Virus record (IMG/VR): IMGVR_UViG_3300049043_000005
Coordinates: 1-36,189 of that record
DNA length: 36,189 bases
Origin: a virus
Direction: 5' to 3' (one strand)
Position numbers and translations under genes: made by a program. Positions 1 to 30,373 of the stretch are shown here, piece after piece (within the stretch, counting starts at the first letter, position 1; each line of letters starts with the position of its first letter). Below the pieces are notes generated by a model, which was not told the DNA's origin, did not search any database, and saw nothing but the letters and a program-made list of their open reading frames with translations.

Positions 1-77
1 GGGTCCTTTCTCATTGCATGTTTAGATGCCAATTTGCTGAGCAAGAAGCCAACAAACAGAAGAATACCGTTAAACAT
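1..77 (-). CDS. Truncated small membrane or secreted protein (5' end only)
   Basis: An ATG at 75-77 on the minus strand opens a reading frame that stays open to the window edge, giving 25 codons. The visible residues start MFNGILLFVGFLLSK and then turn basic (KHAMRKDP), so this is an N-terminal hydrophobic helix of about 12 residues, either a membrane anchor or a signal peptide. A promoter box (TAAATTTG, 88-95) lies 10 bases upstream and overlaps the stop codon of the giant virion gene, so this gene probably starts its own transcript. In this position of a phage genome a holin or other lysis or membrane gene is possible, but nothing visible decides it. Confidence 0.45.
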   Translation of the reverse strand, partial: MFNGILLFVGFLLSKLASKHAMRKD

Positions 78-87
78 ATTGCGAGTG

Positions 88-95
88 CAAATTTA
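88..95 (-). promoter_or_regulatory. Bacteroidota-type -7 promoter box
   Basis: The minus strand reads TAAATTTG followed by CAC, matching the TAnnTTTG consensus. It overlaps the stop codon (93-95) of the giant gene and precedes the truncated gene that starts at 77. No clear TTTG was seen at the -33 position, so the call rests on the -7 box and its placement. Confidence 0.4.
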
Positions 96-3000
96 CTTCT
101 CTTCATCTTTTTTTATTTTAGCATACTCTTTGGCAATTCTTATGTTTTGCTCTCTATTTATGTTCCTACCAACAGCTGAAGTGTAATCACCCATATAGTT
201 GTATATCTCTTGGTCGGTCATATTTTGGTCGTAAATGTATAGTATTTTGGCCCTGGCTACGTCATCTGCGGCATACATCAATTCATTATACTGCTGAGGT
301 ATATCTGGTCCTTTTTTCGCTACTGCATTAATTCTGTTTTTGAAGAACTCTGCGTCCTTTTCATCAAGCTTTCTTACTTCAGCCTTTATTGAATCGATAG
401 TTCTATTGTATGTTTCCGCACTTACCTTTTGTTCGTTTAGATTGTAAAGCTTTTCACCCCACTTGTCTGCTTCTTTTTTTAGAAACAATCTTCTGTCATT
501 GCTTTCTATGTTAGCTTTATCGACTTCTTCTCTCTTCCTGTAACTTTTTGTATCTGGGTTTGTTACTCCGACAAATACCTTCGTGGCATCAGCTCCCAAC
601 CTTTCTCCTACACCCTTAGATATATCCTGAACATCTTGAATTTTCATACCATTCGGGCCCTCTAATTCGTATTTCCTAGAAAAAGCGTCAAGTATAGAAT
701 ACGAACCCATAACAATCAGAGAACTATGAGGGCTTGTAATAATTTTTTCTGTAGCTGCTTGCAATCTTTTTGGTCCTAATCCCAATCCTTGTCCGATAGC
801 TTTATAAAAATACGGTACATCTTTATCGAATAAATCCTCGTATTGGGGAGATGGTTTTCCTTGAGAAGTTTGCTTTGCGTAGTCCCTGCTAACAATTTGG
901 TCTCTAAAGGCATCATAATTTGAGCTGTAAGTGTACATAGTTGCGAAAACAGGGACCGAAGTCATTATCTCCTTGTCTAATTTACTGATGTCTTTTGGAA
1001 GATATGAACCTACAGTTTTAAGTGCAATCTTTGAAATGTCATCATTTATCCTTGGTTCACGGTTGTTTTGACTAGCAACGTATGTCTCAGCGCCAATTTC
1101 CAACAAGTTGGCGAAAGCCTGTAGCTGTTGGGTTTTTGCTATCTTTAAGTAATACCTATTACCATCTTTATCTTTAAATGGAGTAAGTATAATCCAGTTC
1201 CTGAATTTTATTTCATCGGATATATCCTCCATATCATCGTCTCCAAGTGATGCATTAAACAGAGCTAAGGCAAAAATGGCTACCGATAACTGAGCTAGCT
1301 TGAGGGCAAACTGTTTAGGGTTGTTTGCTATATAATTTGTAGATACTCTGAATCCTTGAAACGCTGCGTTAAGGTATGGTATGGCGGACTCTCCAGCCTT
1401 AGTCAATTCACCGCCTTGAGAGAAATCTATTATCTCTCTGACCAAAGTAACGGCTTCCTCTATTATAGGCTTTGCTGCTTCGCTATTAATATCTACCCCC
1501 GCCTCTTCAAGCCTCTTCTCAACCAATGACTGAAATATACCTAGCCTTGGAGCTATTTCAGATAGTTCTCCTAGATAGCCCAAGTACTCTCTACCTTTGG
1601 TTAAGACTTCAGAAGCCTTCATACCAAGGCGAGCCATTCTTCTCTGCTGAGCTGAAGATGGATTACCAAGTCCAATACTTTCCTCTCCTTCCGTGGAAAG
1701 AAACTCCATACCGCCTCCAAACTTTATGTAAAGTTTGAACCCACTTGTCATCAGTAATCTTACTCTTAGCACCACGGATGTAGTCCATTCCTAGCTTAAA
1801 CATCGCTATTGGTAGCGGTACGTTATCGTAAAAATCAGTGAACATCAATATATGGGTAAAATCCCTAGGTACGTTCTTGACAACAAACAACGGGTTAAGT
1901 TGAGTTGCCAGCATTTTTAACAGTCTTGCCCCAGTGACTATGCCAATAATATTCTGGGCTTGAGGAGAAAGTAACGCATATCGCTTCATATCATTAAGAG
2001 AGCTGTACAAATCGTTCCTAAGATAAAACTTTTGCTGAACCCCCTGCTTTCTTCCTTTTTGCGTATAGTACACAATTTCGCTGAACCCAGTTTTAGCTGT
2101 TTTAGATATCCAAGAGGCATTGGTTGGAACATCAACTGCTTTCCCCAACTCTACGTGTATCTTGTTTTTAGCCATCCTAGTAAAGGCATTTTTTGCGTAT
2201 ATACGTAGTAAGTACCTCGAATTGAAAAGCATTTCTTTATCACTACCCTCTTTCAGTCTTTGGATTATTGGACCAGTGAACCTATGTTCACTCATCATAT
2301 TTGAATCCATATCTTCAAACATATGCTCAAGGAACACACGAGGCTGATAGTCGAGCCCAGCTAACTGCTCATAAAGCTTTTCGCTTATCATACCTTCTCT
2401 ATACATCTCATCAAGTATTGATGAAAATGCGTCAAAGTACTCGTCGGCTCTTTCATTTAGCTTAGCAAACGCTTCATCTCCCATTTCAGCTTGGAGTCTT
2501 GATAACTCAAGAGATGCGGTTAAACCATCTATGTTTTCTGGATGTGTTGGTGGCTTTGCTTCCGCCATCTTTTTTTGAGCATTTAACGCTTTTCTTAGCG
2601 TCTTATCGTAGGATGGCGTATTAGGCTGAAGATTGTTAAGTTTAGCCATCGCATCATTGTACTCAGCCAATGCATTATCATACCTTTCGGCAAAATTTGC
2701 ATCAATCGTAGATATCCTACGGAGGACAATAATCTTGTCAAGAAGAGTATTTTCCTCTTGGCTAAGCCCTTTATAGATTCTTGACTCCCAAGATTTTACA
2801 AATGCCAATGCCCTTGAAGATGCCCCAGCCTTGTTGACGATTAAGTTTTTCGCTCTTTGCAAGCCAGCTTTAAGAACTTCCGCCTTAATAAGGTGCTGCC
2901 TATCCAACAGTTTGACTATAGCGTTCTTTATCGTAAAAATCGCTTTGTTTGTCTCTCTTTCAATCTTAGACATAGAGTCTAGATAGGCTTTGTCTATGTT

Positions 3001-6000
3001 TCCTGTGTAGCTCTGTGCGTCCAATGCGTCATTAGGGACATTGTCATTAGCGACATTATCATAGATATCAGCGGCCTCTTGTGCCCCCATAAAACGGCTA
3101 GCATCTCTTATGAATTCCGCTCTGTCAACAAACATCGTGACATTCCCATTAACGTCTTTTTCAGAACGACCTAAAAGATAAGCGTAAAGTCTACCTTTAG
3201 TAGTACCTAAAGCCATTCTTTTAACCTTACCGATATCTTTAGCCGACGGCTTTTCAAAAACCCGCCCTGCAGGTTGTACCACCTGTTCAGCTCTAAGCCT
3301 GTCCTCCGACATACTAAAAGGCGTTGCCTTCCTTTCTTCCTTAGACATCAATGCCCTTTTTTCGGCATTTCTGGCCTCTGCCTCCCCAGCAAATAGCATA
3401 TAAACGTCATCAGAATCTATCTCGTTATCAATCAACCTGTTTAATGTGAGCTTTAATCTTCCTAGCTTTTCATAGCTTGATTCGACAAGTTGAACATAGG
3501 TTTTATATTCATTGTAACGAGCAATTGAGCCATAATTATCAAAGTTTGAAAGCTCGCTTGATGACTCTTTGGTCAAGTCATCCAAAGTTTTGCCATACAA
3601 GTCTTCTAGTTTTTCTTTTAGCTCCTTAGACTTAATCAAAGCGGTTTTCCTTAAATCCTCGGTAGCCTCTATGGCATCTTCTAGTAATTTTTTTGCCTGT
3701 TCTGGATTAGCGCCCCAATTCAAATCATCGATGTGCTGAATTGCGTGTTGGACCTCGTGAACTATAGCCAGATAAACTGCATTTGTCCCAGCGTCAATAA
3801 CATTTTTGTCTATCTGTATAATCCTATCAACAGGGTCATAAAGTGTACCTTGCCCATATGGGCCGATAAGCACGTCAACATATTGCAAGGATGGATAGTA
3901 GTCCAACACAGTTTCGTTCTCTTGAGTACGAGGCTCGTCTATAGGTCTTTCGGCTATTAAATCAGCAAGACTTACAATTTCATCGTGAACTATTAAATTA
4001 TTAAGCGCATTGTCAGACAGCTTTAGTGGCTCAAGTTCATATCTCCACACTTCATCAGCCCCACGTTCCCATCCAGTTTGATAATATATTTGCTCTGGGT
4101 TAAGGCCTTTATCCTCTAGCGCAATAGCTCTCTTCATAGATTCACTAGCCCAGGAGGACATCAATTCCAGGTATTTTCCGTCTTCCCCTATTCTCCTAGA
4201 ATTCACAAGCTTTGTGCCGAATCTTTTCCCGCTAATAATCTGGGCTTTAGTTCTTTTAATTGGTTTCTTACCGTCCCTTGACCTTATGTACGAGTCAAGT
4301 GTTTTTGGGGATTCCGCTTTGTTGCCCTCGTCCCAGCTAGACTTATCGGCCTTATCAACCATCCGCTTGAAGTCAATCACATCGCTCATAAAGCTGCCCT
4401 CATCAAGCATCGAATTCTTATCGGTAAAAGCTCTATAGTAATCATTGCTTAGACGCAAAGCCTCGTTTCTAATCTTTGAGTCAATGTTGGGGTCTCTATG
4501 TATTTCATAGAAATAATGACCAAGACCGTCTGGTATTTTCCATCCAAGTCTTTCTTGGACCTTCCTTAAAGAAGCCCTAGCTTCGTCTCTTTTCTATGAG
4601 TTAAACCAAGAAACACCGTCTTTTGCAAGGTATCCCTCTGCCGTCATAACTTGAATTTCGGCTATAAATCCATCAATAATATCAGAGACTTCTATAAGCC
4701 TTTTAGGATATCCTAGTTCTGTGCTTTCGTTAACTCGTCTTTCTTCATTTTTCTTTCGAGGATACTCTTTTTGTATGAGTTCGTATATCTTATTAGCATC
4801 GTCTTCGTTTTCCACAATGATATTAACTCTTGCCCCGTCTCCAAGTTCTTCGGTAGCCCCAAAATACCATCGCAAAGCTTTTACAGCCGCTCTTGATGGC
4901 CTTTTGATAGAGAAAGTGCTAACAAAAGCACCGTCAGCTTTTGACGCAAAAGATTCCGCTATTTCATTTAGTTTTCTGCGAAGAGCATAAAAGAATGTCT
5001 TATTATAAGCAAAGGTTGACTCAATTACTGGCTGGACTTCTTTCCTTATCTCATCAAGACGTTCTTGCTTGTCTTTAGGTAATTTCTTCTTCTGTTCACT
5101 TAGTATAATCTCTTCCTCTCTTAATTTCTTATACTCAGCAATCTTTTTCTCGGTGCTAGTTAAGGTCGTTTTGAACTCTTTAAGAAAGTTATCTCTAGAA
5201 TATCTTCTGATGTCATATCCTTCGTCGTTTTTGTCTTTCGGCTCGTATCCTTTTGGCTTGAATTTGGCTTTTGCCCCTTCGTAGTAGTAGGACTGTCTAA
5301 TCCTAATATTTGCTCTAACATCGACATTGCTTCCGAGTACCTCATTCCATATTTTTTGGAATTCTCTGAGTTGTTGTTCATAGTTTTCTTGTTTTCGTTT
5401 ATAATATTCTTCGTTTGATTCGTCTGCTTTTTGCTCCCATTTACCAAAGGGAAGGTGGATAATAGATATCTTTATTTTCGTTTTTATTGACAGAAAAAGA
5501 ATCGATTAATTTTGACTCGTTAAGAGCCAAAGATAAAGCATTAACCTGCTCGTTCGTCATTTTTTCTTCAAACTCAATAAATATTTGTGGGTAATGGTCC
5601 AGATTACTGCCTTCATCCCTCTCAAAAAAGGGCATATTTATAAGATTATTTTTGTAATCCTCCTCTTTATAGGACCTCTTTTCAATGATAACTGCATCTT
5701 GGTTGTACCTTTCGGCAAACCTAGAAATCATATCAGATATAGCCTGTTCGTTGGATTCTGGGGTAAGTATCAACCTCATATTCAACGAAGGCTCAAAAAT
5801 TTCATTCCAACTGCCAATATAGTTATCACCAAACTGCACAGCCACACCTCTGTGCTTAGCCACCTCATTCTTTATTGTCCTTCTAGCTCCTTCAGTGATT
5901 TCCTGTCCAAGCTCTTCTAACTGTTTTCCATACTTGATTTCATCACTTGTATTCCCTTGTCTAACCGCTTCATCAAATTTTACCGACAAATCCTTAATTT

Positions 6001-9000
6001 CAAATCTCTTCTTTTCGGATACCCTATACTGCACCCTTTCAGTGGTTGCTGGAGTCATCAAAACATCAAGGCTCTCCACGAGCTTAGGTATTGACCCCAA
6101 TGGAGTCATTATCTTCATCTGCTTAACCTTGCGAGGGGAAGGTCTTTCTTGAGCTTCATTTATTGTCTCCGTAGCTTCATTAACAGCTTCCAAATCAATA
6201 ACTTCATCTAGCTGGATTAAATTGTTTGTCGGAGAGTCAATAATGTCAACCATCTCTTGGTCATACTCATCCTCCATCTTACCGTCTTTACGTACTTGAT
6301 TTGGGAGTTGCTTTAATTTTCCTGGCTCTTCCGTGATGATTTTACGCATTGCATCTGAATAGTCAATATCCATAGCAAACTTATTCCTTTTAATTTCTGC
6401 GTAAAGTCTTTTTTCAAAATACCAAAGGACAGCTTGAACATCAGCCACGGTTAAATCATATCCAGCCTTACTAAGCTTTTCCTTAGCTTTATTTGCTGTA
6501 TTAATCATAAACTCTCGCTCTCCAGCCCCCATAGGAGCATCATTTAACTCAGTAAAAGCGTCCTTATAGATAGTATTAGCAGCTTTTTCAATTTCAGTCC
6601 CGTTTTTGAATTTCTTTTTCTTATATGATTGTGCGTACTTAGTCACCTCTTTCAAGACAGTACCTTTTCTTGCAGTAGGGGGATATCTAACCAACTCCCT
6701 AAATCTAGCCAATCCCTTTTCACTTATTGTTGGTATAAGAGTACCTCTATACCTATTGAATGTTCTGGTCCACCACCTATCCATCGTCAGATACTCTTCC
6801 TGACCAGATAGATTGGCGTAAAAAGCTCCAAGCTTAGGACCAAATATTGCAGCGGATACTGGCAACATCATATCTACCTTATAACCCGAACTCTTAGTCT
6901 TTTTCTTGCCATCTTCCTCGCTATCCTCGCCAAAATCGTCTACTTTGTCACCATATTTCTTTTTTATATCTCCATACCTCATCTTCTCTAGAAGAATGTC
7001 ATTTATATTCGTGAGGTCATTTCCATTTTCTTTTAAGATTTTATTTATTTCTCTGACGTTTGCCTTCATTGAGGCATTCCTTGTTCCCCCAAAATTAAAT
7101 TCTTGAGAAACGAATCCATCTTTTAAAAAAGAATTATATAACGATAGTGCATAAGTATAGTTATTTTCTACCTTTTGCCCATCTGACGTTATAGCAACTA
7201 GCATCGTGAATAGATTTCTATCACTTTGTTCTCTCATAGTAGGCATAACTTTAGCTAGCTCATCTAAAGCTTCTCTAAATTTAGGGCCATACCATCCTAC
7301 TGCCGATTTCTCGCCCAAAGCCTCAATTTCAAATATTACTTCATCGACCATATAGTCAGAAATAACATCTGCGGATTTATCGCTAAAATCTTTTAGTGGT
7401 ATCTTCTTATATTTCTTTTTTTGCCTTAACTCAAGAGCTTCGCCTATTTGACGGTTAGTTATTCTTTTAACATCAGGCAACCCAAATTCCGATAAAGACT
7501 CTTCTTTCCTTCGTAATCCAAGGGCGCTCCTACGAACACGTTTATTGCTATCATTAGCCATCTCTCCTGAGATTTCACCAATATCTTCCCCAGAACCAAT
7601 CTTTTTAGACAAGTCGGCTAGCATTTCCAAAAATTGGCCTTGAGTTGGTCTTACATCAATACCAACAAGACCCAACAACTTGGCGAACTGTTCCATAAAC
7701 GTGTCTATAATTCCACGCTTAACTTTGACACTTACGGAGCCATCCGCTATAAGTGACGCTAGTTCTACAACAAACTCTTCTCCAACATCCTCCTTTTCAT
7801 ATTCACCGCCAAACCGTTCAAAATACGCATTTAGAACTGGATTGCTAAGCAAAGACCTGCGTATACCATTGAACAATTTATTTATACCCTCTTGACCAAA
7901 AACAGCGGGAATAACTTCGTGTAATCCTTCGTGGTAGGCGGTATTTGCAAGTAAATGAGGCACAAAAAGAGCAATATTTGTTTTACCTTTCCCGCCACCA
8001 AGATATAGGCCTCTAGATTCATCTACAACTTTTCTTGCTTTTTCTTCAGTATATCGTTTCCCATTTTCATCCAGCCCATAATTCATCAAGTAATCTACAA
8101 GCGACTCCTTTGTATAAAAAAGACCAACATCAATCTTTTTCCCAAGAGCATTGATTGATTTGATGACATTCGTTATAGATTCAGCGGCTCTTGCTGCTTG
8201 TCTTTTACTGCTTTGATTTGTAAAGAAAGTATTAGCAGCGTTCTTGATAAAATCATATAGAGTATCTCTGACGTTTTCAGCGCCCTTTTCGTCTACGTCT
8301 GTAAAAGAATCTGGATTCCTCGCTGGTTGAGACTGTTCTAAGTTATCGGCATTCTGCCTGGCTTGTTCTTTTTCTTGCTCAGACTCTTGAAGAATTCCAC
8401 CTGTTTCAGTCGCTTGAGCGCCTGTTTCATCGAGCTGTACTCCCCAAGTTCTTGCCCTGCAGCGACTTCACTTGATACTTGTTGTTTTTCTTGGCTATCA
8501 TATTTACTTTCTATAGTTTGTATTTTGGCCATATCGGCCTTGATTTGTTCGACAATTGCTTTTTTCCCCTCGGCATATTTAGCTTCCCTAAACGCTTGCA
8601 TATTAGCCACAACAGATTGCTGTAAAGCATAAAGTCTCTTCCTTATCCTCTTGGGAATATTGCCCGTAAAACAGCATATCCTTATCGGCCCTTGATTTCT
8701 GTTCCGCCAGAAGGTCTCTTAATCTCTTTTCAAGATTAATCCTTTCTGGGGAATTAATTGCTAGTCCAGACTTGCTAAGAATCTGATAAATCTGTGCGAT
8801 TTCGGAGTTCATTTCAAGTCTAGTCCTCATACCAGGAATTCGACCTAATACATTAGGGCTTTTAGCTAAAACAAAAGACCCACCACCCATAACTGAGCCA
8901 AGAATTACCGCATCAGCTAATTGATAAGGGTCAAACTTTTTCCCCGCCATAGTCCATTCCATTCCTTGGGTAACAACATCAACGATACCTTCTTCAAACC

Positions 9001-10497
9001 CCTCCTCGACTAAAGCTCTTACGGAGGCTGGTAGGGCACCAAACATAATATCTCCTAGTTCTTTTTTACCAGCCTGTTGGATAGCTCCATATAAACCTCT
9101 CAAAGCATTTCTATCGTAACTAAATATTTTTTCTGTGTAATATTCAGCAAGTCCAGCTACAGTAGCGTAAATTGTTTTTTCAAAGGCATTATATTTTGGG
9201 TCATAGGCTACACGAGTCCAAGCGTCTCCAGCCGCAGAAGTAGCCATCAATCTCAATCCAGTACTTCCAAGAAACGCTGCAGATAAAACCTGAGGAATCA
9301 TTTCTAACGACTCAAGTCCCAGCATACCCAACGCAGCACCATAGTTACCATCATTTATATTCCCAGTTATTCCTTTTTGTATTTCCTCTATTGAATAACC
9401 TGATAAGAACTTCTCTCCAAGAGCGGCACGGTTTTGCTGGTCAATACCCTCCTTAGCAAAATCTGTTAATTCATCCCTTAAAATATTATCGTCCCCAACC
9501 TCAGCGCCACCCCTTAAAGTTTGACCAAGAGCAGCAGCAGTTGCTATAAAGCCGTAAACATTTCTATTAATAAATCTAGACCCCCAATTTGAGTTTTCCG
9601 CTTCTTTTATAGACTCTTCTTTTATTTTTTCAAATATTTCCTCTTGGTATTTTTTTGCTTTACTGCCGACCCAATCTATTGCCTCTAACGATGGATTCCC
9701 ATTAAAATCCTCCCATTCAGGGACATATTCTCCGTATGCTTTTGCTTCTGGGACTAATGCGTCATAGGATTTTTTTACTTGCGGAAAAAGGTCCTTAATT
9801 GCTAGCTGTTTTTCTTTATCAGCAGAAATCAATGCGGCCTGCTTTTCGGATTCCGAAAGAATCAAACGGTCTTTTGTGTAAGGTCCTGGGATTCCCATTC
9901 CGACCATCGGAATTCCCATCTCATAGTTTGGAGTCGATGCTTTTATTTTGTTTTCCTTTTCTTCAGCAGACGCAACTCTGGAAATTGCATCGTAATACCT
10001 ATTATAAGATTCTTCTTTTGGCTCAGTTGTTTCCCATATATAGCCTTTATTTGGGTTTTCTACTTCACCGCCATCAACATCAAGAAGCCCAGCTTCTTTA
10101 CGGCCTTCAATAACCATATTTACTACATCATCAGGAAGACCAGTTTGGTTTGCTGGGTAGAAAAGGCTGTTCCCTTTACACTAAGGGGGTCTCTATATTG
10201 AAACCCAAATTCGTCAGATGTCTTTCTTCTCCTTTCTAATTCAGAAGAAAGGTCTGTAAAGTCGGGAGACAAAACCGATGAAGAATTCGTGGTTTCCCCA
10301 TCTAAAAATGAGCCCAACCTTGGACTTGGTGAAGTATAGCTCGAACTTTTTTTTTTAGAATTGTAATAGGATTCAGCCTCCTTAATGTGAGCTAATCCCC
10401 ATCCAGCTTCTGCTATAGAGCTACCTATGTCTTTAGCAGTTCTCCCTTTGGCTACTGCTTCGTCAATAAACTTTTTTAAAACTGGGTCTAGTGGCAT
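93..10497 (-). CDS. Giant polyvalent virion protein with two metallopeptidase motifs and a RelA/SpoT-like segment (about 3467 aa, indel-broken)
   Basis: Pieces at 10497-10123, 10117-8603, 8610-8338, about 8440-5441, 5450-4594, 4593-1663 and 1775-93 join into one frame. Breaks lie near 10140, 8630, 8440, 5448 and 1750, with an in-frame TAG at 4594-4596. The 10405 nt minus one net insertion gives 3468 codons. Approximate domains: N-terminal virion region (1-800); HEGLH metallopeptidase motif (about 855) with an acidic EEFVVE about 50 residues on; a helical module with GPKLGAFYANLSG and LTMDRWWTRTF; a RelA/SpoT-like stretch (about 1850-1970: GDGARVNIIV, AEIQVMT); a second motif HEVQHAIQH (about 2246), preceded by a TGW...WRYEL signature typical of large polyvalent phage proteins; a C-terminal region with NPLFVVKNVPRDF resembling LPD38. 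Known family: polyvalent proteins co-injected with DNA. Inferred role: largest internal virion protein, last of a three-gene ejection set. ATG at 10497 follows the previous stop closely. Confidence 0.75.
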
Positions 10498-10502
10498 ATA
10501 TT

Positions 10503-11825
10503 TTATTTTGGTGTTCCCCCTTTTGCGTTTACTGCTTTAACTGCCGTTTCCCCAACGGCTTTGTATATGTTTCTTTTTTTCAAGTCTTGTTGCACCGTAG
10601 AATAAGTTGTGCAGTTGTTGGTCTTCCTGTCGTTGACGGGAGGCCGCTAAAGTCTGCCTTAGCCCAAACCAAATTACCTTTTTTATCAAAGGTTAAGTCA
10701 GTTATAGCTAAGTCATTTCCGCCAATCTTGACTGTATAGTTTTGTGGGGCTATAATTACGTTTCCAGAGGCATCAGCTGTAGGTTGCGGAACACCAGTAA
10801 AAAAGGCATCCAATTCGTTCACATCTGCATTTGTCAGTCTCCCAGGTCCATTACCCCCACCACCTCCACCTGATACCTGTTTAGCTGGAACCATATTTTG
10901 AATTTGTGTAGACAATTGCTTTTTATAATCATCTAGCACTGCTTTAAACCTCATTGGGTCGTTAAGTATTATATCTACCTCCTCTTTTGAAGGTGCGCTT
11001 CCTTTTAGTTTATAGGCCCCTCTTGTAGCTATCTCTAATCTTCTATCATTAGCTCCAGGGTCATTCGCCATATCTAAATTATAGTCAAGGTTCTGTAATT
11101 CCTTGTCTATAATCATCTTTGTATTGTATGACTGCGAGGTTCCTGTATCTATTATAGCAGAAGGTCCATAAAGCTTAATAGCGTTCATTGCCCTATTAGT
11201 AATGTCAACGTCTTTTATAAAAGGATTTTCTTTTTCTTACGCCTAGAGAATTTCCTCCAGGACCTTCAGCGACACCAACAGAAAAACCTAGCGATTCTCT
11301 AAGAGGAACTCTGGTTTTCCCATCGGAAGACAAAACAGTTACTACCCCATCAATTACCTGCGGGTCATAATTAAAACTCGTGTAGTCTGCAAGCATCTTA
11401 TCTATATTTGCCCTAGTGCTTTCATCATATGCATTTGGGTTATCTTTTACTTGTTTGTATGCAGTTCTACCTTCTGTAGAAGCAATTACACCTATATTAA
11501 GGGCTTGATTAAAGTCCTGTCGAGCTTGTTTGAATGCTGCCTCAGCCGTTTGGTCTCCAGAAATCGCCCTTTCTCCAAGTTCCTCCAACTGCTTATATGC
11601 CACATCTAAAACAGCTCGCCTGTTTGGGTCTAGCTTAAACGAGTTATCGTAATAGTTACTTTGAGCTTGAGTGAAACCAAGCTCTGAAGACTTTTCTTTT
11701 TTTCTTAATCTAGCTTTTTCTTGAGCTAATTCTTGCGCTTTGGCATAACTCCTCCCCATTTCGGAAGTTTTTGCTCCAAAGTCGGGCAATTGCCATACCG
11801 ATGCGCCTATTACTGGTTGAGCCAT
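10503..11825 (-). CDS. Probable internal virion protein (about 440 aa, indel-broken)
   Basis: Two pieces (11825-11205 and 11188-10580) and a short third-frame tail form one protein. Near 11228 an extra A in an A-run moves the frame, and the corrected text runs GVRKENPFIKDVDITNRAM. Near 10609 one base is missing, and the C-terminus ends YKAVGETAVKAVNAKGGTPK. The 1323 nt give 441 codons. The first 120 residues are charged and helical (KAQELAQEKARLRKKEK), with a glycine run followed by GPGRL near residue 320. No enzyme motif was seen. The start codon overlaps the previous gene's stop (TAATG). It sits between a hydrophobic-ended small virion protein and the giant protein, the same order as T7 genes 14, 15 and 16, so a T7 gp15-like ejection role is inferred by position only. 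Confidence 0.6.
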
Positions 11826-12668
11826 TACTTTTCAAATCTTTTAATAAGAGCCTTTACATAACTGTGAAGCTTAGACTTGTCATCATTTGCTACATACCTC
11901 TTAATGTTCGACATCTGTTTGGGGTTAAAAAATGTACTCACCACCAGTGGCTTCAGCAATCTTTTCCCCATTCTGCATAATATCTATTGGGTTCTTTTTG
12001 TGAGAGAATGGGCCAGGGGTTTTTACAACCATACCCTTTTTTGCCACCCCCGCTTTTATTTTTGCTGCCTCAATATCTGCTAAACCTCCAAGATATCCCT
12101 GTACTGACGAGCCAATTTGACCTATACCAGCCCCAATATTAGCCTGACCGACTGCCCTTTCTCCAGCGGCTCTATTAAGGTCAGTCTGAAATCTTTCCTC
12201 TCTCATAGCAAGCCTGGCTTCTTGAGCCTGTCTTGTCCTTTCATTGGCCGCACCTAAATTCTGGAGAGCTTCAGTCTGTCTTTGTTGCTGAATGTCAGCG
12301 ATGCCTTGAGCCTGTCTCTGTGCTTGCTGAGTAGCTGCACCGATACCTCCAAGCAAAGCCCTACCGCCAGCACCAGATAAAGCCTCTGTAGTCCCAGCCA
12401 ATCCCGCCTTGATGGACTCCATCTGACGGTTCATAATGTCTTGGTTATAGGCATCTTTGTAGGCTTTGTAATACTCTGATGGAGTTCCAGCTATTGGTGC
12501 ATTAAGGTCTGGTGCGCCTTTCCTTATTTGCTCCATATCTTTTTTCGCCCTTTTGGCCTGTACCGCTCCCATAATAGACTGACCAACCCCAGCAAGACCA
12601 CCTATAATAGCTGACCCAGCCAACAAGCCACCTACAACGTATTTCTTCGGATTTTTACGTGATTTCAT
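11825..12668 (-). CDS. Probable internal virion protein with glycine-rich hydrophobic N-terminus (about 280 aa, indel-broken)
   Basis: The main piece (12668-11925) stops at a T-run. Removing one T near 11930-11936 continues the protein as GEYIFNPKQMSNIKRYV and ends at 11825, giving 281 codons. Residues 10-36 (VVGGLLAGSAIIGGLAGVGQ) are a long glycine-rich hydrophobic segment that could insert in a membrane. Residues 85-180 are Ala/Gln/Arg-rich and helical (QQAQRQAQGIADIQQQRQ), a coiled-coil-like region. This pattern resembles T7 gp14 and similar internal virion proteins that form an ejection pore. It is the first of three adjacent candidate ejection genes. Assignment is by composition and position, not by sequence match. 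Confidence 0.6.
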
Positions 12669-12681
12669 AAGTGTAAAGATA

Positions 12682-15600
12682 CTATTCAGTTACTTGTTCG
12701 TTGTGAAGCCTTGACCTAGTCAAGTATACGTTAAATGCGTAGGCCTCTATCGGTGTTGTCAAGCTGTTTGTTAAATCGATGATAAAGAACGGTCCTCTAA
12801 CAGGGTCACCGTCAATAGACGCTTGACTATCAGCCACAAGGATAGTACCAGTTGCTATGGCCATAGTGCTCCCAGATAAGTTCCCAAGAAGTATCGTGTT
12901 GGTCCCAGATGCCTGTATTGTGGCGTAACCAGTGGCTCCATTGTAAATAGTAGTAGTTCCACCACTAGTCAAAGCCCCTATAAAGGAATTCCCGCTAACT
13001 TGGAATGGGGTCGTGATTCTGTTTCCCAATGTCAGAGTAACACCACTAGCCCAAGTCCCCGTTGCTGTAACGTAACCGATAACGGCTCTATTTGATACAG
13101 CGTTTGTCGAAGTTGCGTTAAGCCTTGGGACGTTTGCATAATAAGCGCCCTCTCCTAAGCGATATGTTCCCAGTCGCCACAGTAACGGTATCGCCAAGAT
13201 GCTTGACCACTGACGGTAAACTTAAATGTCCAAGGAGCATTCCCCTCTATGCTGAAAGCCTCAGCTGTCTTGACCATTGAGTTGTTGAATGCAGATATAA
13301 GCTTTACTGAGGATACATTTCCGCTTCCATAGAATTCGTTCCTATTAGCCAAATCGGTATGCCTATACATCTTACCCTCTTTGAACGTATAGAGGTAGTT
13401 GTCAAGATGCTCGTAAGCCTCTGGTTTGAACGAATACCTCGTATTCCACACCTTGTCCTCCATATCGTAGGCAATCGTATCATTAAAAAGGTCACCGCTT
13501 GAGTTTACATTCACATAGGTGATGTCGTACTCCCCGTGCATAGGGTCAATACCGCCAATAGTCTTGTAGGTTCCGCTAGAAGATGCAATGATGAAGCACT
13601 TATCTTGCGTGTAAGCGTCAATCTTTGCCTCGCTGATAGGCTCCAACCCATCTGGCCCAATGCGTACAATCTTGCCAGACCTTACGTCTGAGAAGTATAC
13701 TCTTCCGTTGTAAGACTTAACACTTTCAGGGTTTTGAGTCCCAAAGTCCCCAGCATAAACAGATTGAACTCCAAGTAAATTAGTTGACACGGTTACATTT
13801 GATGTACCGTCAAGGTATTCAATGAGGTTTCTGTTTATCGGGATAAGCGATGATTTAACTTCCTGAAGAACCGTAATGCTGTCTCCGTTGTTCAGCATCT
13901 GCTTAATAGCCCCGTAGGCGTTAGGTAGGTCGACAAAGTTACCTTGACCGCCATTGAATGATGACAGCTTTAATACAGATGAATCTAATGAATAAGGCTC
14001 TGAGTATGTTATTGATGACTTCCTTTTAATCTGTTTTACGTTTAATGACTCCGCATTTGGTCTACCAAAGCCTAGATAATTCGATTCGTAAAAATCGCTA
14101 ACGCTAAGGTCTTCAACATACAATGTAGAATATCTTATATTAAACACATCCGAAGGGTCCACATTAGGCCCTCCACTAACAAACGGATTTAGTTTAATTT
14201 GTCTAGGTCGGCTATAGCAGTCTCCATTGGATGTAACTATTATCGAATCTGTTGTTCCAGTTATGTTCGAGTAATTAAAATCCCAAGTACTATCTATTAA
14301 CGCATTGTTCTGAGTAAAAGTAACTACTAAGTTTCCAGATGTATTAACATACGTAGATTCAACGGTTCTAGTAGCTATAAGTGGAGTATTTGGAGGAGTG
14401 ACCCTTTGGGTAAATTCTATTCTATCTCCAGGGTATATTTGGGTGAACCCAGATGATATTGTGAAAAGGCCATTCAGTGCGACTAGACTTTGAGTGCCAG
14501 CGGAAGTATAAGACCTATCTCTTAAAATTAGTTTTATGATATCTTATTCCTCCAACAGTTGACGAAACGTCTCCATACAACCCTATCTCATTGTATACTG
14601 GCGTATTAACAGACCCTACTGGCCTGTATATTTCTACGATACAATCATTAGGCCACCTAGAGTTATTTGAGGTTATGTCGCTTGATGAAAACAATAAATA
14701 CCCCTCGTCTTTCACAGACATAATCCATCCTATAGCTCTTCCGCCTCCATATGTGGTTGTATTGATTGGAGTGTCTTGTGACGTATAATAATCATAACTT
14801 ATGATATCGAATATATAGTTTCTTGGATAATAAATTTTGCCATTCAATGGGTCGGTATAACTCACTATTCTTAGCTTGTCTCCCTTTGCGAACGAGTAAT
14901 TGAATATTGCTCCCTTTGACTCCTTGTACGAAGAGTCTTGCCCTTCAAGATGCCTCATCGATAAAAATATATTTCTTCCAACAGTGGAAGATGTTGAAGA
15001 GGCCAACATACCTTCGGCTACAGAATACCTATAAGCAAAAGAGTAAGTGCTATATGGAGAATATACTATTTGGTAATTCTTTGCCCAAGATGGCGGCTGA
15101 TTAGATAGCCTAATAATGGCCTTAGAGGGCCCGAATGGAGCGTCTCCTCTTTCGCCTTCAGTTTCGACATAATAGCTATCTAATGGATTTACAGAAGAGC
15201 TTCTATTATAGTTGTCATAATATACCACGCCAAATTTGTGAAATTGGCCAGACTTAAATGTCTTATTATTTACGAACGTTGTGAATACCGTTGACGATGG
15301 ACCTATAAGCTTATAATTATTAAGAGTGCTATTAAAAATTCCTTGGAAGGTTAATCCGCTTGTTGTAGCTATGGAATCTGGAAAACTCCATATAAGAGGA
15401 GGGAATGTTAATGTGTAGTAGGCTGGAGTGCCGTTATTATAAGTTCCGCTTACATCAAGCACTGAATTGGACTGTATATTGAGGGAACTTGTCCTGACAT
15501 CCATTGTTAATATACCACTAGAAATAGTACCGCTTCCTATAGTGACACCTATTGTTCCATTCAGTGAAAAAGTTAATCCGCTAACAGGCTGTCCCTGCCC

Positions 15601-17106
15601 AGTTATTCCAGAAACAGCTAATAAATTTGAATTATTGGAGCTTGTTGTTCCTATGTATGTCCCAGAAATAGCTGAGTTAACTGATGAGGCTAATGCGTTT
15701 AATGTCGCATATCCAGACGGAAGCGATATTGTCTTTTGTATAGGTATATCTATTTCTCCTAGAGTTATTGATGAAGCAATAGCGTACCCAAAATTATAGT
15801 CGGTTGCACTAGGCGGTATGCCTGGGTTATATATCTTTTCAATTAAATACTTACTCGCTTTTAATGATATAGACAGAGGTATGGTTATAGCCTTTCTTGA
15901 AGAAGCTGGGGCCTTATTGAAGTCAAGGCTAATTTTCCAGTTAGTAGATACAGTTCCACCAGTAACCGTTACTCCAGTAACTGTTTCATATGAAGATATT
16001 ATTGACGGTATATTTAATACATCTTCAAAGTTAAATAAAACATTGCCAGAGACTTTGTCTGGTATATCAAAGAATTCCGTGTAATTGCCATAAGACAGCC
16101 TATTCCCAGATATGACTTGAGATTGACTCTTTAATGGGACATTATCGAACAACTTGTTATTTTCATTGTCAGATAGAGGATTAAGTAGGTTTGAATTAAA
16201 AAAACGGACTGAGCCAGTAGAAATTGCTCTATCATTATCTATCTCCCTGAAAAAACAAAAATTTGTTTGATTTTTTGATTTTGAAAAAATCCGTATCTTA
16301 GATACATCGCCTTTAGAGTATTTAAAATAAACATCTATAGCGTTAAACTTTTCGATATACTTTGATTCATCGATTCCATCAAGAACGCTATAAGTGTTTA
16401 TTGATATATCAGAGTGGGGAGATAAAGCCGAAAGCTCGCCATCTTCATATACATACTGATAGGCAAATTGAAAAAAATCTTCTTTTAAGTAGTTAGAATT
16501 TATATTTGAGTCAATGGCTAGCGCTATTGATAATGGCTCCAAAGGAGGGGCCTTAATCGTCGTGATGCTCAACAGTTTCTCATCGTCCGTGTAACCAGTA
16601 GCTCCAGCAGCCTTGTAGGGGTAACCACTAACCCCAGCTGTATTCGCCAGTGCCTTTGTGGCGTTAATCTTCTTGGGGTCTGTAACCCCATCCGTGAAGT
16701 ACAAAAGCGTGTCACCGTTCTCCTTAACGAGGCAATCAGCCTTGACAAAGCCAGTTGCTGTAAACCCAAGAACCGAGTCTCTGTAAACGAGCCTTACAGT
16801 GTTCCTTCGGCTCGTGTACTGATAGATGCTATGGTTGCCACCTGAATTGTGGACAAAGTAGAATATCTCTCCTGTCTGTTTACAAGCTGTTGTACCGATG
16901 ACTGTATTAGTTCCAGGAGGTAAATCATCACCACTTGCATTATAGCTAACGAGTGTATTCCCAAGAGCGTTCTTAATGACCCCTGCGTTACCGCCCTCGT
17001 CATCAGACATCTGCACATTGAGCGCATCAACCATCTCCACTGATTTAACCAGTAGATAGTCGTCGTCTTTATTGAGATACCGAGGTATTAGCTTATCAAT
17101 AGCCAT
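12682..17106 (-). CDS. Large tail protein resembling crAss-like 'stabilization protein' (about 1473 aa, indel-broken)
   Basis: Three frames join here: 17106-14515, about 14520-13155 and 13197-12682. Extra bases near 14520, 13192 and 13160 explain the breaks, and 4425 nt minus three gives 1474 codons. The N-terminus (LIPRYLNKDDDYLLVKSVEMVDALNV, then GNAGVIKN) is the part I recognise: tail stabilization proteins of crAss-like phages open with a similar 'polypeptide of DALN(V/I)..., G(V/I)(I/V)KN' signature. The rest is rich in Ser, Thr and Gly with many beta-strand-like repeats and a segment IGPDGLEPISEAKI that looks like a propeller or sheet module. It follows two connector candidates by 2 bases, fitting a tail tube or nozzle role below the portal. 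The C-terminus runs through an Ig-like region (VTATGTWASGVTLTLGN). Confidence 0.65.
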
Positions 17107-24676: not shown

Positions 24677-27138
24677 TTAAGATGGTTGTGTCATTTCTTG
24701 TTGGCCACCAAAGATACTATTCATAAGCTCTTCATCTGCAGACATCAGCTCCCCCCTCTCACCCTTCCTTTGGCTGATTAGCTTGGATTGCTCAATAGCT
24801 TGAGCCTTGACACGCTCATCCTTAGCCTTCTCCTTCTTGTCTTCGAGCTGTTCTCTAAACATCTTATCACCTTGAGTAATCATATTTCTCATATCCGCTT
24901 CCAATCTAGCTAACTCCATTTTAAGAGCATATTCCGTTTGAAGCAATTGGGCTTTTGCCTGCATTTCCAGTTGAATCTTTTGGGCCTCAAGTTGAGCTTG
25001 AGTCTGCAGCTCTTGAATCTTTGCTTGAGAGGCAACCATAGTGGTTTCTTGGTTGGCCTGTGCTTGCAGTTGACTATTTTGAGCAGCTAATTCGGAATTT
25101 TGCCGAACTCTCTTCTTTCTTCTGACAATTAACAGCATTTCAGCCTGGTCTACATCCTTTAATCTCCTAATAGCTATTGCATCTTCAAGGTCTATTTCCT
25201 TCTGAGCTAATGAGGCCTGAATGTTTGCTTCAAGATAAGCTTCATCTGTCTCATTCATTTCTGTGACCACCTTTACCCCGAAATTGTACATCGGTAAATC
25301 GGCAAAGGATGACAGAACCTCCATATTCGCTTTACCGATAGCATTCTCATATACCCTATAAATAACCGATTCCGTAGGGAGAATCTGAAGACACTTAATG
25401 ATGTCCTCGCAAACCTTCTCTGAACAGAACCATTGAAGAATGAGTAATGTCGTAGGTAGCGTTGTTTGAAGCGTCAATCGCTTGCTGACGAACACCAACC
25501 AAAGCATCGCCTTTCGGTGTAGAACCGTCGACAACCTCGTTAATGCCCGTGGTATCACGAATCATTCGCAGATAGTGGTTATATAAAGCTATAAGCTCAT
25601 TGATGTTCCGAATCTGATTCTCAATAGACCGAATTGGTGGGTTCTGAAAGCCACCCTCTGGATTCTTAGAGCGATAGTAGAACACACCAGTCTGCTCGTA
25701 GATATCTTGAATCTGCAGGGGCTGTAAGTCACCACCTTGACCAAGCTGCACGTTTTCAAGGCCCTCTACGTCAATAATAAGCCCATCAGGCTTGGCTTTA
25801 GCAATAGCTTGCTGAATCTTGAGGTGAGTAATCTGGAGTTGGTCAGCAAAGCCAATCACCGATGAAACCATTGACTTGGGCTGTAGTCTACGCATATTTA
25901 CAGCTACAGCGCTATAGGACATACGTGCCCTTGTAATGTCGTGAACATTCTTTGGCACATTTTTCTTCATCCCGTAAGCAAAAATCATATCGGTTCCAAG
26001 GACGTAAGTGCCCCCGTAAACCGTTGCATAGGACATCTTAAAGGGCTGCCTATCGTACACGCTTTCACGTGGTGGGGTGTACATAGCCCCCTTAAAGTAA
26101 AATCCCACATTACCGAACTTAGACTCCTTGCTCTCGTAGAACACGTTGTCAACGGACATAAACTCAAAGTCAAGCACCTCAACGATGTACTCGTCGTACC
26201 CGTAAATCATACGGTTTGTGTACCTATCGTAGTTTGAATAGCCGATTCTGCCTGGGTTGTTGGAGTATTTGTACTGAACATCCCTAGCAATCTTTTCGTA
26301 CTGCTCCTCAGTTAGCTCATCCCCTGCAATCCTTTTCAGCTCTTGAATGCTGAAGCCTTTTGATATGACCAGCGTAGGTAAGGTCCGCCATATTGGGGTC
26401 CTCTGTATAGGAGTGGACAAAGTAAGCTGGGTCAACATAATTCGTGGTAATCCCGTAATTAGGGTCATTTTCACGCTTTACAACAGCCATACCTAAAGCC
26501 ACAATGTCATTTACGCAACGTCTAAAAACGCCATCGTTAAAATCATTCCATTCAAGAGTTAAGTTTGTAGCAATCTGTGAAGCTATCTCCGCATTGGTCT
26601 TTATGTTGTTTTCAAGGAATATCTCGGCTTCTTCTGGGGTTTCTGGGATGTTATTATCGTCAACTCCAGTATTAACACCAGCCTGATTTGCCATTTGAAT
26701 AAGTTCCTTATTTTGAACTTGAAACTTAACTTTAGCTTTCTGTTTTTCCTTTTCTGAAATAGAAAGTGGGTCAACAGCCTCCACATTAGGGTAGGGCTTG
26801 CGTCCTAGAATCTTGTTAACGACAATGCGAACAAACTTAGGAACGATGGGGACTGGGGACCAGTCGATGTTAATCAAAGAACCATCCCCGTTGTTGGGGT
26901 CCAACGATGTGAGAATCTGCTTGTAGATAGCAACATCTTGGGTTCCGTTGGCGTAATCCCTGTTCCTTTCAAACTCCCCGTATCGCCTAGCAAACGCACT
27001 CTGTGCGTCATCAGTTCTACCCCATTGGCCTTCAATGGCCCTTGCATACTTTAAACCGTACTCTTTGGTCTGCTTCGCCTCTGTCGGAGCTAACGGATTA
27101 GGGAAGTTCCCACTAGGGAAGTTTATATTTTTAGCCAT
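24677..27138 (-). CDS. Portal protein (about 819 aa, indel-broken)
   Basis: Three frames join with one extra base each near 26355 (an A-run, restoring AGHIKGFSIQELKRI) and near 25420 (restoring the run into EKVCEDIIKCLQILP). The 2462 nt minus two give 820 codons. The N-terminal part (ALEDKG-like helices, NGTQDVAIYKQIL, VPIVPKFVRIVVNKILGRK) and the crown or clip regions fit large portal proteins of Bacteroidota podoviruses. The segment IENQIRNINELIALYNHYLRMIRDTTGINEVVDG is the long stem helix that portals share. The last 200 residues form a Gln/Ala/Lys-rich coiled coil (LQTQAQLEAQKIQLEMQAKAQ), a barrel or crown extension. It lies directly after the terminase gene with its own promoter box at 27164-27171. 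Confidence 0.8.
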
Positions 27139-29316: not shown

Positions 29317-29609
29317 TACTTAGCGAATTCTTCTGCAAAGCCACTTGAATAGTCGGACTCTTGCTCAAGCTCACCATCCTCCCTCAGTGAGGATATCATC
29401 TCCTCAATCTTCTGCCTCTCTTGCAACAGCTCTCTAGCGTCTGTAACCGTTTGCTTAATCGCAGACAATTCAGCCTTTCTTGCTGCCCCAACAAGCTCCT
29501 GGGGGATAGGCTTACGCACCTCTTCAATAAGATTGGTGATGGCGTGCTCCATCGATGTCAGAAGCTGTTGAGCGGCCTCAATGGTCGAGAACTTAGGCTT
29601 TTTCTGCAT
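29316..29609 (-). CDS. Small helical protein upstream of terL, terminase small subunit candidate (97 aa)
   Basis: A longer frame exists, but the better start is the ATG at 29609 (MQKKPKFSTIEAAQQLL). It lies within the end of the GroES-like gene and avoids the Arg-rich out-of-frame extension. The protein is almost all helix, with a coiled-coil stretch (LVGAARKAELSAIKQTVTDARELLQERQKIEEMI) and an acidic tail. It overlaps the terL start by a TAATG. Position and helical content fit a terminase small subunit, but no helix-turn-helix is obvious. A GroES-operon or scaffold helper is also possible. Confidence 0.45.
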   Translation of the reverse strand: MQKKPKFSTIEAAQQLLTSMEHAITNLIEEVRKPIPQELVGAARKAELSAIKQTVTDARELLQERQKIEEMISSLREDGELEQESDYSSGFAEEFAK

Positions 29610-30180
29610 ACAGAATGTCATCAATACGCATCCTGTAAACGGTTTCCCCTTCGAGCTCCATCTCGTAGTCTGCGTTGTTTGCGAAGTAAACCTTGTCCCC
29701 TTTCTTGATTCCCTCCCTGTCAAGTTCGTCGGATTCGTACAGAATCGTAGCGATATTCTTCTTGACAGATGGTTGTAACAAGATAATCCCGCTATTAGTC
29801 TTCTCCCCTTCCTCCTTCTCAATCCCTACAAACACCCAATCCGAAAAAAGCCTAAGCTGACCGTTCCTCTTGTAGGCATAGGCCTGAGTGCCGTGGCCCC
29901 CTGTCTTGCTGTATCTTACGAGGTACAGGTTCTTACCTATTTCAGCCCTTGCGTCAAGAACGACGTGGTGGTGGAAATAGAGTATGTCCCCGACACGAAC
30001 AGGAGTCTCGTGCTTTAATGGTACTCCAACGACCTCCCCGTAGCAGTATCTGTTCTCGAACTCCCTAAACTTGCTTTCAAGGTAGAACTCCTTTCCAGCC
30101 ATCTTAAAGGTGTCTTTGAACTTCTTTGGTAGCTTAACCAAGAAGTCGTGTACAGGGGTTATCTTAGAATTTGCAGTCAT
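29593..30180 (-). CDS. GroES-like co-chaperonin candidate, 195 aa
   Basis: The ATG at 30180 is preferred over a TTG two codons earlier. Two parts resemble the GroES (Cpn10) fold. The first is residues about 8-80: ITPVHDFLVKLPKKF, then YGEVVGVPLKHETPVRVGDILYF. The second is near the C-terminus: SGIILLQPSVKK, then GIKKGDKVYFANNADYEM and YRMRIDDILYA. These fit the order beta-strand, GII(V/L) loop, V(K/R)xGDxVxF and a final DIL strand found in GroES. Known parallel: T4 gp31 is a phage GroES needed for folding of the capsid protein. Gene order beside terL, and a capsid gene downstream, support a similar role here. At 195 residues it is about twice the usual length, as if the domain is enlarged or duplicated. 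Confidence 0.55.
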   Translation of the reverse strand: MTANSKITPVHDFLVKLPKKFKDTFKMAGKEFYLESKFREFENRYCYGEVVGVPLKHETPVRVGDILYFHHHVVLDARAEIGKNLYLVRYSKTGGHGTQAYAYKRNGQLRLFSDWVFVGIEKEEGEKTNSGIILLQPSVKKNIATILYESDELDREGIKKGDKVYFANNADYEMELEGETVYRMRIDDILYAEKA

Positions 30181-30373
30181 ATTCAACGATTACAGGCATA
30201 TTCTTGATGCTTTTCCAGTGCAAAGTCCCCTCAGTATTCTCAATAAATATCTCAAAGCGGTCCCCTTCGTCGTTTTCAACGATAGCCACTACCTGGCCTC
30301 CACCAGCTGGCATACCGATAAAGTAAGCCATAGCGTCTTTAGGGTTTACACCGATAATAATCTTGCGTATCAT
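30164..30373 (-). CDS. Small conserved phage protein, 69 aa
   Basis: ATG at 30373 with the frame MIRKIIIGVNPKDAMAYFIGMPAGGGQVVAI, ending EYDCKF. It is intact, starts one base after the preceding gene's stop, and overlaps the GroES-like gene start. I recall similar short proteins with 'NPKDAMAY' and an 'ENTEGTLHWKSI' segment in flavobacterial phages, function unknown. It was hidden as the tail of a longer fused frame that runs through an upstream indel. Confidence 0.55.
   Translation of the reverse strand: MIRKIIIGVNPKDAMAYFIGMPAGGGQVVAIVENDEGDRFEIFIENTEGTLHWKSIKNMPVIVEYDCKF

What the first reader, a model, noticed from the sequence alone, without database searches (positions are those of the whole stretch)
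4490..5030. RelA/SpoT-like segment inside a virion protein
Around residues 1850-1970 the text KRPSRAAVKALRWYFG, GDGARVNIIV, a GYPKRLIEV stretch and AEIQVMT follows the order of alarmone synthetase motifs (Asp/Arg loop, GY, E(I/V)Q.T). The Glu of EIQ is kept but the usual Asp position near the Arg is shifted. It may be an active or decayed nucleotide pyrophosphokinase-like domain or a look-alike. Delivering such an enzyme at infection would be a way to rewire the host stringent response.
Basis: inference. Interest (0 to 1): 0.7.

Follow-up and report, generated by a model that had tools for sequence, protein, structure and literature searches.

The report
Alarmone-synthetase-like domain in phage polyprotein
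A giant protein of uncultured phages that probably infect Bacteroidota carries a real, conserved enzyme domain of the RelA/SpoT family, closest to toxins that drain a bacterium's ATP by making the alarmone (p)ppApp, so these phages probably deliver a metabolic shut-down enzyme into their host; what it acts on is still unknown.

Summary
Window 4414-5034 (minus strand) encodes a domain whose closest solved relative is Tas1/Apk1, the (p)ppApp-making type VI effector. The evidence: profile E = 8.6e-11; AlphaFold2 pLDDT 88.5; structural Z 14.7 to 17.3 over 190 residues, against 11.5 or less for other RelA/SpoT proteins. Pfam sees it only below cut-off, and misses most relatives. I found 28 relatives in other viral contigs and two in bacterial MAGs. 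All catalytic positions are invariant in the 28 aligned viral rows, and dN/dS is about 0.06. The Asp of DGAR is not shifted: it sits in the canonical Asp column, with Arg at +3 as in Tas1 and phage RelA/SpoT proteins. The acceptor-nucleotide loop is unusual (GYPKRL instead of GYxSxH or GYSGxN), so the product cannot be called from sequence. The domain is a module of ~3000-aa polyvalent proteins and recurs in scaffolds otherwise unrelated. The window copy is broken by frame breaks and one TAG; relatives are intact. RelA/SpoT in phage polyvalent proteins was described in 2017, so this is a new variant of a known kind. Activity, packaging and delivery are inferred.

The parts
4414..5034 (-). RelA/SpoT (Apk1/Tas1-like) pyrophosphokinase domain, equivalent to residues 39-245 of the L002 model
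   Evidence: Profile A2 vs PDB: Tas1 E=8.6e-11; VIA Z=14.7, 190 aligned; PF04607 sub-threshold at 4636-4857. Coordinates transferred from L002.
4879..4908 (-). ATP-donor motif IKRPSRAAVK (K82, R86, K90 invariant in 28 relatives)
4828..4839 (-). DGAR: catalytic Asp (D104) and Arg (R107), DxxR form of the toxin/phage class
4696..4713 (-). Acceptor loop GYPKRL: stacking Tyr kept, Asn/His of other families replaced
4651..4659 (-). EIQ: catalytic Glu (E164) and Gln (Q166)
4492..4521 (-). GHYFYEIHRD, the C-terminal GHxxYExxR motif shared with Tas1
4594..4596 (-). In-frame TAG inside the domain of the window copy; intact copies exist in relatives
5035..6090 (-). N-terminal partner module (~310 aa) that accompanies the domain in part of the family; a frame break lies near 5440-5480 (approximate limits)
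93..10117 (-). Giant polyvalent-protein gene (several frames in this record) that contains the domain
3745..3759 (-). HEVQH zincin motif, downstream peptidase-like region of the same protein
   Evidence: PF04298 weak
7919..7933 (-). HEGLH zincin motif, upstream peptidase-like region of the same protein
4030..4143 (-). LPD23, large polyvalent protein associated domain 23
   Evidence: 35.2 bits, over cut-off
762..1241 (-). LPD38, large polyvalent protein associated domain 38 (just below cut-off)
   Evidence: 26.1 bits

Best explanation
The segment is a pyrophosphokinase domain of the RelA/SpoT superfamily, nearest to the Apk1/Tas1 toxin-type branch, carried as an exchangeable module in a ~3000-residue polyvalent protein of phages that probably infect Bacteroidota. 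It would bind ATP-Mg through K82/R86/K90/R107 and D104/E164/Q166, stack an acceptor base on Y147, and transfer pyrophosphate to its 3'-OH. Most likely the acceptor is a purine nucleotide, giving (p)ppApp-type products. The protein is probably packaged in the virion and enters the cell with the DNA; where a zincin domain is present it may free the module by self-cleavage. The enzyme would then drain purine nucleotides or block host growth early in infection. Shown here: fold, catalytic residues, purifying selection, polyvalent context, module exchange. Inferred: activity, product, packaging, injection, timing.
For: Profile of 28 relatives against PDB: Tas1 E=8.6e-11, aligned over the whole synthetase domain, with no other RelA/SpoT protein listed. 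AlphaFold2 model pLDDT 88.5, pTM 0.84. Foldseek against PDB puts 6ox6 first, E=3.9e-7, TM 0.72 on the target. VIA Z=14.7, 190 residues, 3.3 A; in the 620-residue cassette model Z=17.3, 2.9 A, next RelA/SpoT rows 11.5 or less. 12 of 12 catalytic or signature positions invariant in 28 rows (42-55% identity to L002); dN/dS 0.04-0.11 in five pairs, 0.06 for window against L002. One clade, support 98/98. LPD23 and LPD38 neighbours. Across scaffold groups, homology outside the domain falls to 0-3% in the extreme pairs (L002 with L028 and L031).
Against: Acceptor loop GYPKRL and EIQV(M/I) lack both the GYxSxH/IR signature of (p)ppGpp synthetases and the GxN signature of (p)ppApp synthetases (PMC12226406), so the acceptor is open. 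No neighbouring hydrolase of the HD_4 type was found in 15 records, unlike Apk2 loci. No direct evidence of packaging. The window's own copy has a TAG and frame breaks.
Confidence: 0.72

Rival explanations
1. [quoted passage not shown]
For: The acceptor loop has replaced the nucleotide-reading residues and gained invariant basic residues (K149, R137) in all 28 rows. CapRel is among the next structural matches (Z 11.5). Phages of this type might benefit from tRNA-directed shut-off (inference).
Against: Sequence and fold are clearly closer to Tas1/Apk1 (Z 17.3; E=8.6e-11). No test of tRNA binding was possible.
Confidence: 0.15
2. A true (p)ppGpp synthetase that imitates the host stringent response early in infection.
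For: Member of the superfamily. Some Apk1-like exported enzymes make only (p)ppGpp (VpEAS and AaEAS, PMC12691689), so nearness to Apk1 does not fix the base. The invariant Glu at loop position +7 (E153) could in principle read guanine (inference).
Against: Lacks the GYxSxH and EIQIRT residues tied to guanosine acceptors (PMC12226406).
Confidence: 0.2
3. A catalytically dead remnant kept as a structural or binding part of the virion protein.
For: The window copy has a stop and frame breaks.
Against: Every catalytic position is invariant in 28 relatives and selection is strong. L002 and the other giant genes inspected are open. Conserved head genes of this record are broken too (portal and phrog_14478 split over two ORFs), which points to sequence errors.
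Confidence: 0.06
4. A look-alike with a different fold.
For: Pfam score is below cut-off and most relatives give no PF04607 match.
Against: Model, fold searches and profile all agree on RelA/SpoT.
Confidence: 0.02

Closest known systems
Tas1/Apk1, type VI secretion effector, (p)ppApp synthetase (PDB 6ox6)
   Same: Whole-domain fold and sequence match; DxxR, GY, EIQ and GHxxYExxR motifs; probably delivered into a bacterium
   Different: 25% identity; acceptor Asn (N370) replaced, loop GYPKRL; in a phage polyvalent protein, not a PAAR effector; no cognate immunity gene identified
Apk2, MuF-fused (p)ppApp synthetase of temperate phages (PMC12226406)
   Same: Phage-encoded toxin-type synthetase linked to head proteins
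   Different: Apk2 is the C-terminal domain of a MuF protein with iapK and aph1 immunity genes; here it is internal in a ~3000-aa protein and no HD_4 hydrolase was found
RelA/SpoT domains of polyvalent proteins (Iyer et al. 2017, PMC5512222)
   Same: Same architectural idea: RelA/SpoT next to LPD domains and peptidases in giant phage proteins
   Different: Described there from spirochaete and epsilonproteobacterial (pro)phages. The present family is one clade (98/98) apart from another giant-protein class found here, L051-L056, with GYGDVLINV and EIQIN
Canonical Rel/RelA/SpoT and small alarmone synthetases
   Same: Core fold, Asp column, GY, E-Q
   Different: Arg at D+3 not D+5; no HD or regulatory domains; guanosine signature absent

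Membership tests
RelA/SpoT (RSH) synthetase superfamily | Synthetase fold of the Pol-beta nucleotidyltransferase type | tested here: met
RelA/SpoT (RSH) synthetase superfamily | Catalytic Asp, ATP-binding Lys/Arg, stacking Tyr, Glu-x-Gln | tested here: met
   K82, R86, K90, D104, R107, Y147, E164, Q166 invariant in 28 rows
RelA/SpoT (RSH) synthetase superfamily | PF04607 above gathering cut-off | tested here: not met
   19-21 bits against 27; most relatives give no match. Known phage RelA/SpoT phiN3 also scores below it (23 bits), so this is a limit of the model rather than of the domain
RelA/SpoT (RSH) synthetase superfamily | 3'-pyrophosphokinase activity | not testable with these tools
   Needs enzymology
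Apk adenosine 3'-pyrophosphokinases (Apk1/Apk2) | Closest in sequence and fold to Tas1/Apk1, DxxR form | tested here: met
Apk adenosine 3'-pyrophosphokinases (Apk1/Apk2) | GxN acceptor signature at syn3 (GYSGxN) | tested here: not met
   GYPKRL in the window family; so it is not filed as an Apk, only as Apk1-like
Apk2 MuF toxins | MuF N-terminal domain and adjacent Aph1-type hydrolase | tested here: not met
   No MuF match reported in the giant proteins scanned; no HD_4 in 15 records
Polyvalent proteins (Iyer 2017) | Giant multidomain phage protein with LPD domains and peptidase | tested here: met
   LPD23 over cut-off, LPD38 near it; HExxH motifs; ORFs of roughly 2500-3850 aa in most relatives
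Polyvalent proteins (Iyer 2017) | Packaged in the virion and injected | not testable with these tools
   Only indirect: downstream of head genes; a phi46:3 homologue of another part is annotated 'virion structural protein'

The most novel reading that the evidence does not exclude
A separate clade of virion-delivered pyrophosphokinases whose acceptor is new (a tRNA end, another RNA or an unusual nucleotide), read by an invariant GYPKRLIE-type loop, exchanged as a cassette between unrelated giant proteins of phages of Bacteroidota.
Probability: 0.2. Interest if true: 0.72.

Novelty: new variant of a known kind. Interest (0 to 1): 0.48.

Why it matters
Alarmone-type synthetases are known as interbacterial toxins, MuF phage toxins and anti-phage defences. 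A conserved clade inside giant phage proteins would be an offensive use by phages at the start of infection. It is hidden from current annotation (Pfam below cut-off; no meaningful match in PHROGs, NCBIfam or PADLOC), so its frequency is underestimated. Its changed acceptor loop is a clean natural test of how these enzymes choose between A, G and tRNA acceptors.

Tried and rejected
(1) Recoded stops: reading TAG or TGA as sense does not restore one frame over the gene; frame breaks plus broken head genes and an intact relative point to sequence errors. (2) 'Decayed domain': rejected for the family. (3) Single-protein searches: phages tblastn no match and PDB phmmer no significant match; they needed the family profile. 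(4) A hydrolase or immunity partner: HD_4 absent in 15 records; other immunity types were not looked for. (5) Whether close relatives of the same scaffold lack the domain: the scan with the C-terminal part gave only four loci, none informative. (6) Bacterial homologues: 1 of 395 Bacteroidota genomes, plus a second MAG, truncated. (7) N-terminal partner module: no Pfam family; its fold was barely tested because the synthetase filled the list. (8) Weak Pfam matches to SidC_N and eRF1_1 were discarded: small, sub-threshold pieces, not repeated in the relatives. (9) Helical N-terminal profile matches to Hsp70 and apolipoprotein fragments are coiled-helix noise.

Full report
Where it lies. The window is a 36,189-base virus record. 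Its minus strand holds head genes (terminase, portal, virion structural proteins, GroES-like) and, downstream of them, a ~10 kb gene region from ~10117 to 93. The terminase is closest to Flavobacterium elemo-type, Cellulophaga and uncultured phages (40-48% identity), so a Bacteroidota host is likely (inference). In the window the large gene is split by frame breaks and a TAG. A relative about 95% identical in most of the DNA, L002 (20 kb contig), has it as one open frame of 3174 codons. The portal and another head gene of the window are also split over two ORFs with consecutive matches to one family, so sequence errors are the likeliest cause.

The observation. PF04607 (RelA_SpoT) matches at 4636-4857 with E = 7.1e-6 for this record and 0.0016 against all Pfam, under its cut-off of 27 bits.

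Relatives. Scans of viral contigs gave 28 loci with the domain, 42-55% identical to L002. The giant ORFs around it were open in the 17 loci inspected, about 2480 to 3850 aa where the locus holds the whole gene. Genome contigs gave two MAGs: a 448-aa ORF in a Chitinophagales MAG and a truncated one in an Ignavibacteriales MAG. Only 1 of 395 Bacteroidota genomes had it, the MAG already known. No isolate phage in the annotated collection matched the window's domain. Known libraries are nearly blind to it.

Fold. A profile of the relatives against PDB sequences gives Tas1 (6ox6) at E = 8.6e-11 across the whole synthetase domain, and no other RelA/SpoT protein. The AlphaFold2 model of L002 residues has pLDDT 88.5 and pTM 0.84. 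Foldseek puts Tas1 first (E = 3.9e-7, TM 0.72 on the target). VIA-align gives Z 14.7 over 190 residues at 3.3 A, then SpoT, Rel, CapRel and small alarmone synthetases at 8-10.5. The 620-residue cassette model repeats this: Tas1 Z 17.3, 2.9 A. Viral-structure matches include a phage 'Tas1', 'RelA/SpoT' proteins and polyvalent proteins.

Catalytic positions. Numbering by the L002 model, K82, R86, K90, D104, R107, R137, Y147, E164, Q166, H211, Y214 and E215 are all invariant in 28 rows (naive hypergeometric P about 1e-8, which ignores relatedness). dN/dS is 0.06 between the window and L002 over the core and 0.04-0.11 in five other pairs. In an alignment with a canonical Rel, an Azospirillum plasmid protein, a gut-phage protein and phiN3, the D of DGAR lies in the canonical Asp column and the Arg sits at D+3. 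The same D/R spacing holds in SaEAS (D121/R124, PMC12691689).

Acceptor side. Published signatures are SxH at syn3 in (p)ppGpp synthetases and GxN in (p)ppApp synthetases (PMC12226406). The window family has GYPKRL (GYPKKL in one) and EIQV(M/I)T or close variants, matching neither. Swapping such motifs did not convert Apk2 in that paper, so motifs alone do not decide specificity. I lean to (p)ppApp because of nearness to Apk1, with tRNA and (p)ppGpp as live rivals; some Apk1-like exported enzymes do make (p)ppGpp (PMC12691689).

Context and mobility. The protein has LPD23 and LPD38 matches, and several relatives carry HExxH motifs. The giant proteins fall into several scaffold groups. Between L002 and the main group only ~10% outside the domain is alike, essentially the ~310-aa N-terminal partner; with L028 it is 0% and with L031 3%. 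The synthetase therefore behaves as an exchangeable module. The window and L002 also differ by a swapped segment and by a segment present only in L002. A tree separates the family (98/98) from a second class of RelA-like domains in giant phage proteins, L051-L056; several outgroup branches are long and the rooting is unsure.

Literature. RelA/SpoT domains in polyvalent proteins and MuF proteins were reported in 2017, with the suggestion that they shut down or alter host transcription and translation (PMC5512222). MuF (p)ppApp synthetases are biochemically proven (PMC12226406). I found no report of this family in the held library, which lacks most subscription papers.

Verdict. A real, conserved RelA/SpoT-type module, new as a subfamily, in a known kind of phage protein. 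Shown: fold, residues, selection, modular context. Not shown: activity, product, packaging, injection.

Noticed in passing
24677-26474 and 13155-17106, minus strand: Portal and a virion structural protein (phrog_14478) are each split over two ORFs with consecutive profile matches, a sign of sequence errors throughout the record.
   Followed up: partly
L002 aa ~1942-2126 (absent from window near 3190-3243): L002 carries a segment that reads like a GNAT acetyltransferase and that the window lacks; a different segment is swapped at window 7541-6238. L016 also has a weak GNAT match.
   Followed up: partly
L051-L056: Another set of giant phage ORFs (2861-3400 aa in four checked) with a different RelA-like domain (DLLR, GYGDVLINV, EIQIN, GHxLYE).
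   Followed up: partly
window 5035-6090; L002 aa 976-1292: N-terminal partner module of unknown function (FEPSxNM, YxQDA motifs) that travels with the synthetase in most of the family; could be a regulator or inhibitor in cis.
   Followed up: partly
L046:2854-3573 (Azospirillum oryzae plasmid): Stand-alone 239-aa Tas1-like protein annotated hypothetical, next to an ABC transporter operon.
   Followed up: no
L036:7680-9023: Chitinophagales MAG has a 448-aa ORF with the phage-type domain among ordinary chromosomal genes; phage remnant or captured toxin.
   Followed up: partly
window 1-12000 against 12001-36189: The polyvalent-gene region has lower GC (~0.39-0.40) than most of the structural-gene region (mostly 0.42-0.47).
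   Followed up: no
29593-30186, minus strand: GroES-like co-chaperonin between terminase and other genes (phrog_13932).
   Followed up: no
L032 against L002: Order of homologous blocks is permuted between the two giant proteins, as expected from domain shuffling.
   Followed up: no
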